Notes under the pieces: model-generated | Databases searched by the model: none | What the model was told of the DNA's origin: nothing | Seen by the model: the letters and a program-made list of their open reading frames with translations, nothing else | Made by a program: the position numbers and the translations under genes | In this document: in pieces, positions 56,561 through 58,090 of the stretch | Layout: the number at the start of each line of letters is the position of its first letter | Position numbering within the stretch: the stretch's first letter is position 1 | Assembly (NCBI GenBank): GCA_013205245.1 | Contig: JABMNH010000016.1 | Location: 1 to 64,000 of the forward strand | Source: Flavobacteriales bacterium | Lineage (GTDB): Bacteria; Bacteroidota; Bacteroidia; Flavobacteriales; Flavobacteriaceae | Direction of reading: 5' to 3' | DNA length: 64,000 bases

Positions 56561-56660
56561 TGTTGTTGGTTATATGAAGCTATAACAAATATAAACATTT
56601 GTAAATCACAATAAGCTAAAACATAAAGTATTTACAATAAATATATTAGTTGTATCTAGT

Positions 56661-56752
56661 CTTTGCGAGCGTAGCGTGGCAATCTCTTTCAAAACAGTAA
56701 ATAATTTCATGAGATAACCACGTCATCCCGATAGCTATCGGTACTCCTCGTA
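56661..56752. repeat. Composite palindromic repeat at the IS110 insertion site
   Basis: Two palindromes: GTGGCAATCTC (56676-56686) with GAGATAACCAC (56711-56721), and the perfect 14-bp CCGATAGCTATCGG (56728-56741). 'TGCGAGCGTAGCGTGGCAATCTC' and 'CCCGATAGCTATCGG.ACTCCTCG' are familiar flavobacterial intergenic repeat words. The IS110 element sits a dozen bases beyond the second palindrome. Confidence 0.7.
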
Positions 56753-56789
56753 TTCTATGATTAAAACAAATAAAAAATGTTAAATTTAA

Positions 56790-57785
56790 TTAAGCTGCAT
56801 ATTTCATAATATCCACGTATGGTGTCTGACGATTTACAACAGCAAAGATTCTAGATAATAATTTATTCCTAAGAATGTTTATAGTATTCATTTTGTTTTT
56901 ACCTTCAGATACTCTTTTATAATAATAGGTTCTCATTTCTGGGTTGTAATTAATAGATGCTTTAGCACATAGATCTAATAAACTTTTTATTTTTTTATTA
57001 GCTAGATGACTTACTTTTGTTTTACCTCTTATACTTGTTCCTGACGTATTAGGGAAGGGAGCTACGCTACAATAAGAAGCAAACTGTCGCCAACTTTTAA
57101 ATTTAGTAAAGGCTTCGCTGTAGGCAATTATAAATAAAGCCGTTTGTCTGCCAACGCATTTGACACTTGTTATCAGTCTGAAAATATCTTTTAAAGTATT
57201 CTCATTATTGATAATAGTATCTAAACCCTTGTCAACTATATCAATTTGCTTTGTTAAATATTTAATCATTTTTTCTTGCGTTGGTAATAAAATTTCATTG
57301 TCTTTCTTAAGCAACACACGAGAAAATTCTTTTAGAGAAGATTTGTACCCAGCTCTTTGTTTAACTAGTCTATCTCTTAAAGAAAGAAGCCTTTTTAAGT
57401 TAATTATTTCCTCACAAGGCATTTCATATGGTTTAATCTCATCTCTTAATCGGTAACCATAAAGAGCTATTTTTGTAGCGTCTACCTTATCATCTTTACC
57501 TCTTGCAATCCCTAATGATCGTTTAATTTCAAGTCCAGAGACTAAAGCAAAAGGAAGGTTTTGTTCAGTTAAAAACACAGATAATAGATAAGAATAAATA
57601 CCTGTGTGCTCAAAGATAAATAGTGTTTCTTCTTTTGAAAATGGATTATTACAATTAACCCATTTAATTAGTTTTTTAAATCCCTTGTTTGTGTTTTCAA
57701 AGACACTAAACATTTGATTGCTGTGAATCCGAACATCAAATTTTAATTTACTGATGTCAATGCCAATAGTTTGTTTAATTCTCAT
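56790..57785 (-). CDS. IS110-family transposase (DEDD recombinase)
   Basis: Recombinase of 331 residues. The N-terminal RuvC-like DEDD domain shows D10 (IGIDISK), E59 (FEHTG), D99 and D102 (GKDDKVDA). A coiled-coil-like middle (about 120-200) leads to the C-terminal Tnp_20 domain, with SVKCVGRQTALFIIAY, FASYCSVAPFPNTSGTSIRGK (the SGTS segment carries the catalytic serine in this family) and HLANKKIKSLLDLCA. The length is full and no lesion is visible, so it is probably active. Its guide RNA is encoded in the leader upstream. Confidence 0.93.
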   Translation of the reverse strand: MRIKQTIGIDISKLKFDVRIHSNQMFSVFENTNKGFKKLIKWVNCNNPFSKEETLFIFEHTGIYSYLLSVFLTEQNLPFALVSGLEIKRSLGIARGKDDKVDATKIALYGYRLRDEIKPYEMPCEEIINLKRLLSLRDRLVKQRAGYKSSLKEFSRVLLKKDNEILLPTQEKMIKYLTKQIDIVDKGLDTIINNENTLKDIFRLITSVKCVGRQTALFIIAYSEAFTKFKSWRQFASYCSVAPFPNTSGTSIRGKTKVSHLANKKIKSLLDLCAKASINYNPEMRTYYYKRVSEGKNKMNTINILRNKLLSRIFAVVNRQTPYVDIMKYAA

Positions 57786-57811
57786 AACTTTGTATTTAAG
57801 TTTATTAAAAT

Positions 57812-57966
57812 GGTTACTTTGACTAAAACCTTTATGAGGTATTCCGAGGGATATCGGAGCTGAAATTCTATTTGGTCCTTTGTAACCGGGTTATAAAAGA
57901 ATGGGGACTAATACGAGCGATACTTCTAAAAAAACTACGTTAAGACCTAGTTCACCCCATTCTTTT
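57812..57966 (-). ncRNA. Probable IS110 bridge RNA with target- and donor-binding loops
   Basis: Read on the minus strand. Stem-loop A has a 12-bp stem AAAAGAATGGGG/CCCCATTCTTTT (57955-57966 with 57895-57906) and an inner stem (ACTA/TAGT). Its loop holds GTCTTAA (57940-57946), equal to the left target half plus core, and CTCGTATTA (57909-57917), complementary to the right target half. Stem-loop B has a GGTTAC/GTAACC stem (57882-57887 with 57812-57817) and an inner TTCCGA/TCGGAG-type hairpin. Its loop holds ATAGAA (57866-57871), equal to the element's right end plus core, and TAAAGGTT (57827-57834), complementary to core plus left end. Exact RNA ends are unknown. Confidence 0.85.
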
Positions 57967-58090
57967 TTCTTTTAACAAATTTAAATGTTTTTTATAGTTT
58001 GCTAATCTAAAGGTTAAGACGCATTTTTTTTGATTTCCCAAAAAAAACTCAAAACTCATAATTCAAAACTCATAATTCTTCAAGACTTTG

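What the first reader, a model, noticed from the sequence alone, without database searches (positions are those of the whole stretch)
56755..58015. IS110 element whose leader encodes a readable bridge RNA, with guides matching both target and donor
Seen in sequence: the 228-base leader has two stem-loops. Loop A holds, in the right order and on the right strands, GTCTTAA (equal to the left flank plus core) and CTCGTATTA (complementary to core plus the right flank). Loop B holds ATAGAA (equal to right end plus core) and TAAAGGTT (complementary to core plus left end). All four matches meet at the same dinucleotide AA. Established knowledge: IS110 elements such as IS621 use a bridge RNA with target- and donor-binding loops of this form. 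Inference: this is a working RNA-guided recombinase with target GTCTT-AA-TACGAG and an AA core, unlike the CT core of IS621.
Basis: partly seen in the sequence, partly recalled or inferred. Interest (0 to 1): 0.88.

Follow-up and report, generated by a model that had tools for sequence, protein, structure and literature searches.

The report
RNA-guided jumping gene in REP repeat
This is a small bacterial jumping gene (IS110 family) that carries its own guide RNA.

Summary
The element is a complete, single-copy IS110 insertion sequence (56750-58012, minus strand). Its leader encodes a two-loop bridge RNA.

The crossover register is wrong. The AA "core" and target GTCTT-AA-TACGAG are rejected. 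The bases AATAC at the right junction are the element's own conserved end. Homologues of the empty site for the relatives' insertions mostly run without a gap across the junction with a single shared C. The host genome holds the reconstructed target, GTCTTAAC|GAGGAG, intact elsewhere in a REP-like palindrome doublet. The core is therefore NC (AC here): the second base is an invariant C and the first base is free.

What looked like core pairing is the right guide plus a handshake guide, which pairs with the donor strand after strand exchange. The circle junction would rebuild a Bacteroidota-type promoter.

This is a known kind of system. The NC core, and a right-guide base tuned to the donor instead of the target, make it a modest new variant.

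The parts
56750..58012 (-). IS110-family element, 1263 bp counting one copy of the shared C (left junction C at 58013, right junction C at 56750)
   Evidence: Ends set by relatives and empty-site homologues; coordinates
56790..57785 (-). IS110 recombinase, 331 aa; DEDD residues D10, E59, D99, D102 and serine S248 (aligned with S241 of IS621) conserved
   Evidence: AlphaFold model matches ISCro4 and IS621 recombinases, TM about 0.8
57787..57975 (-). Bridge RNA, two-loop part (covariance-model match); the transcript probably starts near 57995
57938..57946 (-). Left target guide GTCTTAACG: 9 of 9 equal to the reconstructed empty site GTCTTAACGAGG; one base out of step with relatives' loops
57913..57917 (-). 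Right target guide CTCGT, complementary to (A8 C9) GAG
57910..57912 (-).
   Evidence: handshake concept from PMC11208158
57865..57871 (-). Left donor guide ATAGAAT, equal to the right end of the element
57828..57834 (-). Right donor guide TAAAGGT, complementary to AC-CTTTA (donor core plus left end)
58013..58020 (-). Left half of the target, GTCTTAAC (edge of a REP-like unit); core bases A8 C9 at its end
56640..56749 (-). Right half of the target and rest of the REP-like doublet (GAGGAG...GACGTGG...GAGATTGCCAC...CGCAAAGAC)
56750..56758 (-). Right-end donor half ATAGAATAC (donor bases 1-9); AATAC belongs to the element
56767..56770 (-). TTTG, candidate -33 box in the right end
58002..58009 (-). 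TAGATTAG, candidate -7 box (TAnnTTTG-like) in the left end; 20 bases from TTTG once the circle closes

Best explanation
A complete IS110-subgroup element inserted once into a REP-like palindrome doublet of a Flavobacteriaceae genome. Shown by sequence: the anatomy, the conserved two-loop RNA, the guide-to-site covariation, the junctions and the target. Inferred from IS621: the excised circle joins right end to left end, which restores a promoter that transcribes the bridge RNA and the recombinase. The target loop pairs with GTCTTAA-C-GAG and the donor loop with ATAGAAT-AC-CTTTA. Top strands are cut 3' of an invariant C at position 9 and exchanged. After the exchange, the right target guide with its handshake guide is complementary to the recombinant strand AAT-AC-GAG. 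Position 8 need not match between target and donor: the left junction usually keeps the target base and the right junction keeps the donor A.
For: Protein family and fold. Two-loop RNA: 29 pairs, 17 with changes on both sides, 92.7% of cells paired, covariation 0.315 against 0.150 shuffled and at most 0.098 when slid (the structure was derived from this alignment). The model also finds the RNA in distant relatives. Guides against own flanks in 17 elements: left 124 matches against shuffled mean 60 (max 102), right 81 against 34 (max 61), 0 of 20,000 shuffles in each case. Empty-site homologues: in most alignments for 10 relatives, gapless across the junction with the single-C register; the rival register never scores higher. 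Exact target GTCTTAACGAGGAG intact at another locus, and 14 sites in the genome against 2 in the control. Promoter halves 19-20 bases apart in 18 of 20 circle junctions, counting TTTG or TTG.
Against: Single copy and no orthologous empty site: the one congeneric genome available is not syntenic on the element's side of the exonuclease gene, so the empty site is inferred from repeats. The window's left guide is one base out of step with relatives, and its inner target-loop stem has a G-G mismatch. In this window alone the rejected register gives longer right-guide pairing (9 nt against 5). No RNA or activity data.
Confidence: 0.9

Rival explanations
1. One reading: the target is GTCTT-AA-TACGAG, with an AA core shared by target and donor.
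For: In this window alone, right-guide pairing is 9 nt in this register against 5 nt in ours, and AA stands at both junctions.
Against: AATAC follows CATAG in most relatives whatever their target. Left junctions of relatives read GC, TC, CC or AC, with no shared AA. Empty-site homologues lack the two extra bases. GTCTTAATACGAG does not occur in the genome, while GTCTTAACGAGGAG does, in a REP-like repeat.
Confidence: 0.04
2. A decayed, immobile IS110 copy: the anatomy is intact but the element no longer moves (single copy, weakened inner loop stem, shifted left guide).
For: One copy in 2.38 Mb; G-G mismatch in the inner target-loop stem and a one-base guide shift.
Against: Open reading frame complete with conserved catalytic residues, both ends intact, full-length RNA model match at 152 bits, 9-nt left guide match to the site.
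Confidence: 0.25
3. Guide-flank matches are coincidence; the recombinase recognises the site by protein alone.
For: No RNA-seq is available here.
Against: 0 of 20,000 permutations on either side; two relatives (L011, L039) share guides but lie in different genomes, and their flanks share the guide-matched bases.
Confidence: 0.01

Closest known systems
IS621 (IS110 group, E. coli) and its bridge RNA (PMC11208160, PMC11208158)
   Same: DEDD/serine recombinase with the same two Pfam domains and fold; RNA in the left end, target loop before donor loop; left guide 5' (same sense as top strand), right guide 3' (complement); REP target; promoter formed across the circle junction; handshake guide next to the right guide.
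   Different: Core NC with invariant C at position 9, instead of CT with near-invariant T; target and donor usually differ at position 8; the right target guide carries the donor's base 8; Bacteroidota-type instead of sigma-70 promoter; right donor guide contiguous (TAAAGGT), whereas that of IS621 is discontiguous.
ISCro4 (PDB 9t56)
   Same: Best structural match (TM 0.81 by query) and best sequence match (E 4e-15).
   Different: About 20% identity in the structural alignment; its core and target were not examined here.
IS1111 group and seekRNA (PMC11187229)
   Same: Related recombinases guided by an RNA from a non-coding end.
   Different: IS1111 carries its RNA region downstream of the gene and has long subterminal inverted repeats; this element has its RNA upstream.

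Membership tests
IS110 family (IS110 group) | Recombinase with DEDD RuvC-like (PF01548) and PF02371 domains, conserved serine | tested here: met
IS110 family (IS110 group) | Long non-coding end upstream of the gene, short right end | tested here: met
   About 227 nt upstream, about 40 nt downstream
IS110 family (IS110 group) | Bridge RNA with target loop then donor loop, conserved fold | tested here: met
IS110 family (IS110 group) | Guides complementary to target and to joined ends | tested here: met
IS110 family (IS110 group) | Scarless insertion around a short core | tested here: met
   Empty-site homologues, mostly gapless
IS110 family (IS110 group) | Circular intermediate with promoter at the junction | not testable with these tools
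   Promoter-like boxes at fixed spacing in predicted junctions; circle itself not observed
IS621-like subfamily | CT core dinucleotide | tested here: not met
   NC core, C in 18 of 18 left and 20 of 20 right junctions; right-end motifs were partly chosen by their AC ending
IS1111 group | RNA region downstream of the gene | tested here: not met

The most novel reading that the evidence does not exclude
In this Bacteroidota branch the target loop's 3' strand is written for the product, not the substrate. Its base for core position 8 matches the donor in 20 of 20 elements and the left-junction (target) base in only 4 of 18. Together with the next three bases it makes an extended handshake of about four pairs, which forms only after top-strand exchange and would favour insertion.
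Probability: 0.35. Interest if true: 0.6.

Novelty: new variant of a known kind. Interest (0 to 1): 0.46.

Why it matters
It supports bridge-RNA targeting in a branch of Bacteroidota IS110 elements through natural covariation and repeat-borne empty sites. It shows that the core is not always CT (here NC, the first base free), and it supplies elements for testing whether handshake pairing drives strand exchange. It also warns that reading guides from a single copy can put the crossover in the wrong place, because the right guide runs on into handshake bases that match the element's own end.

Tried and rejected
Rfam has no match for the leader; the only hit, a miRNA family, is below threshold. 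The congeneric genome G206 gives no empty site: not syntenic on the element's side of the exonuclease gene. A donor-loop handshake with the target does not covary (the donor loop is nearly constant). Target-loop handshake covariation is supported by L016 and L042 but broken in L020, L040 and L043, so it is only suggestive. Right ends of L012, L017, L018 and L019 could not be placed, and those loci were left out of the statistics.

Full report
What is there. On the minus strand, 56790-57785 encodes a 331-aa IS110 recombinase. Pfam finds both IS110 domains and NCBIfam calls it an IS110 RNA-guided transposase. Sequence search finds ISCro4 and IS621, and an AlphaFold model (mean pLDDT 86) matches the ISCro4 and IS621 synaptic-complex recombinases with TM about 0.8. 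The DEDD residues and the serine aligned with S241 of IS621 are conserved in relatives. The element is single-copy in its 2.38-Mb genome.

Relatives. 73 of 400 genomes of the same family carry a relative at E <= 1e-30, and a scan of genome contigs gave 30 loci (some are the same loci), 44-69% identical for the ones aligned here. Their leaders were read and the ends compared.

The RNA. An alignment of 19 leaders gives two stem-loops with open internal loops. Of 29 pairs, 17 have changes on both sides, 92.7% of cells pair, and the covariation score is 0.315 against 0.150 in shuffles and at most 0.098 when partners are slid. The structure was derived from this alignment, so the slid control leans in its favour. 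A covariance model finds the window RNA at 57787-57975 (152 bits) and RNAs upstream of more distant relatives, including Pontibacter, that were not used to build it.

Guides. In 17 elements with both flanks, the left guide matches its own left flank at 124 positions (shuffled mean 60.1, sd 6.3, max 102) and the right guide its own right flank at 81 (mean 33.6, sd 5.2, max 61). None of 20,000 permutations reached either value. L011 and L039, with the same guides in different genomes, share the guide-matched flank bases TCCCAAATC and TTACC.

The register. Most right junctions read CATAGAATAC whatever follows, and most left ends start CCTTTAG after a variable base. So AATAC belongs to the element, and the only base shared by both junctions in every element is C. 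Joining flanks with one C and searching each relative's own genome found repeat copies that span the junction. Several pieces reach only a few bases past the junction (L036, L037), and a few carry gaps nearby (L020, L039, L043 and one for L016).

The host target. The right flank of the window is part of a repeat. Reconstructed with one C, the site is GTCTTAAC|GAGGAG. That exact 14-mer stands intact elsewhere in the genome. Fourteen sites fit the degenerate pattern within one mismatch against two in the control, and most head a palindromic REP-like doublet. IS621 also targets REP elements (PMC11208160). The Polaribacter relative L044 appears to sit at the same point of a similar repeat in the opposite orientation.

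In this window alone the rejected register gives longer right-guide pairing (9 nt against 5), though shorter left-guide pairing (7 against 9). In IS621 the bases next to the right guide form a handshake guide that pairs with the donor strand after exchange (PMC11208158). Here those bases (ATT) match donor bases 5-7 in 17 of 20 elements, and the right guide's base for position 8 matches the donor in 20 of 20 but the left-junction base in 4 of 18. So the long match is target pairing followed by product pairing. Right-end motifs were chosen partly by their AC ending, so the 20 of 20 is somewhat biased. Two elements (L016, L042) covary at the handshake and three (L020, L040, L043) break it.

Junction bases. 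In 14 of 18 elements the left junction carries a non-A base at position 8, the right junction always A, and position 9 is always C. With top strands cut 3' of position 9, as in IS621, this is what inheritance of the top strand would leave. This step is inference.

Promoter. Joining right end to left end puts TTTG (or TTG) 19 or 20 bases from a TAGATTTG-like box in 18 of 20 elements. This fits the Bacteroidota promoter form TTTG...TAnnTTTG (own knowledge) and parallels the circle-junction promoter of IS621.

Verdict. The AA core and the stated target are wrong. The element is an IS110-group member with an NC core and a REP-like target.

Noticed in passing
L017, L018, L019, about 110-120 nt upstream of the true target loop (e.g. 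L018 about 1230-1300): A second hairpin that resembles the target loop, with diverged guide-like sequences; it folds better than shuffles in L018 and L019 (z -3.8, -3.0) but not in L017 (-0.6). Possibly tandem target loops.
   Followed up: partly
L046, L047, L048, L050, L052, L053, L055, L057, L062 (Pontibacter, Rufibacter): Relatives inserted next to (C)TAAC or similar with GG on the right and often GTTAGGC further on, which looks like integron attC sites.
   Followed up: partly
L009, L017, L018, L019, L040, L043, between left end and target loop: Shared stretch like GAGGGGGTCTGGGGGAGACTCATAAC of unknown role.
   Followed up: no
G000 loci L128-L138, L140, L141; window 56640-56749: REP-like palindrome doublets GTCWTWRC|GAGG...GACGTGG...GAGATTGCCAC...CGCAATGAC, about a dozen copies outside the insertion.
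   Followed up: partly
L016, G398: Four copies of this relative in one genome with the same score and identity, one inserted in a GCCTGCC...GGCAGGC palindrome; useful for a copy-by-copy target study.
   Followed up: no
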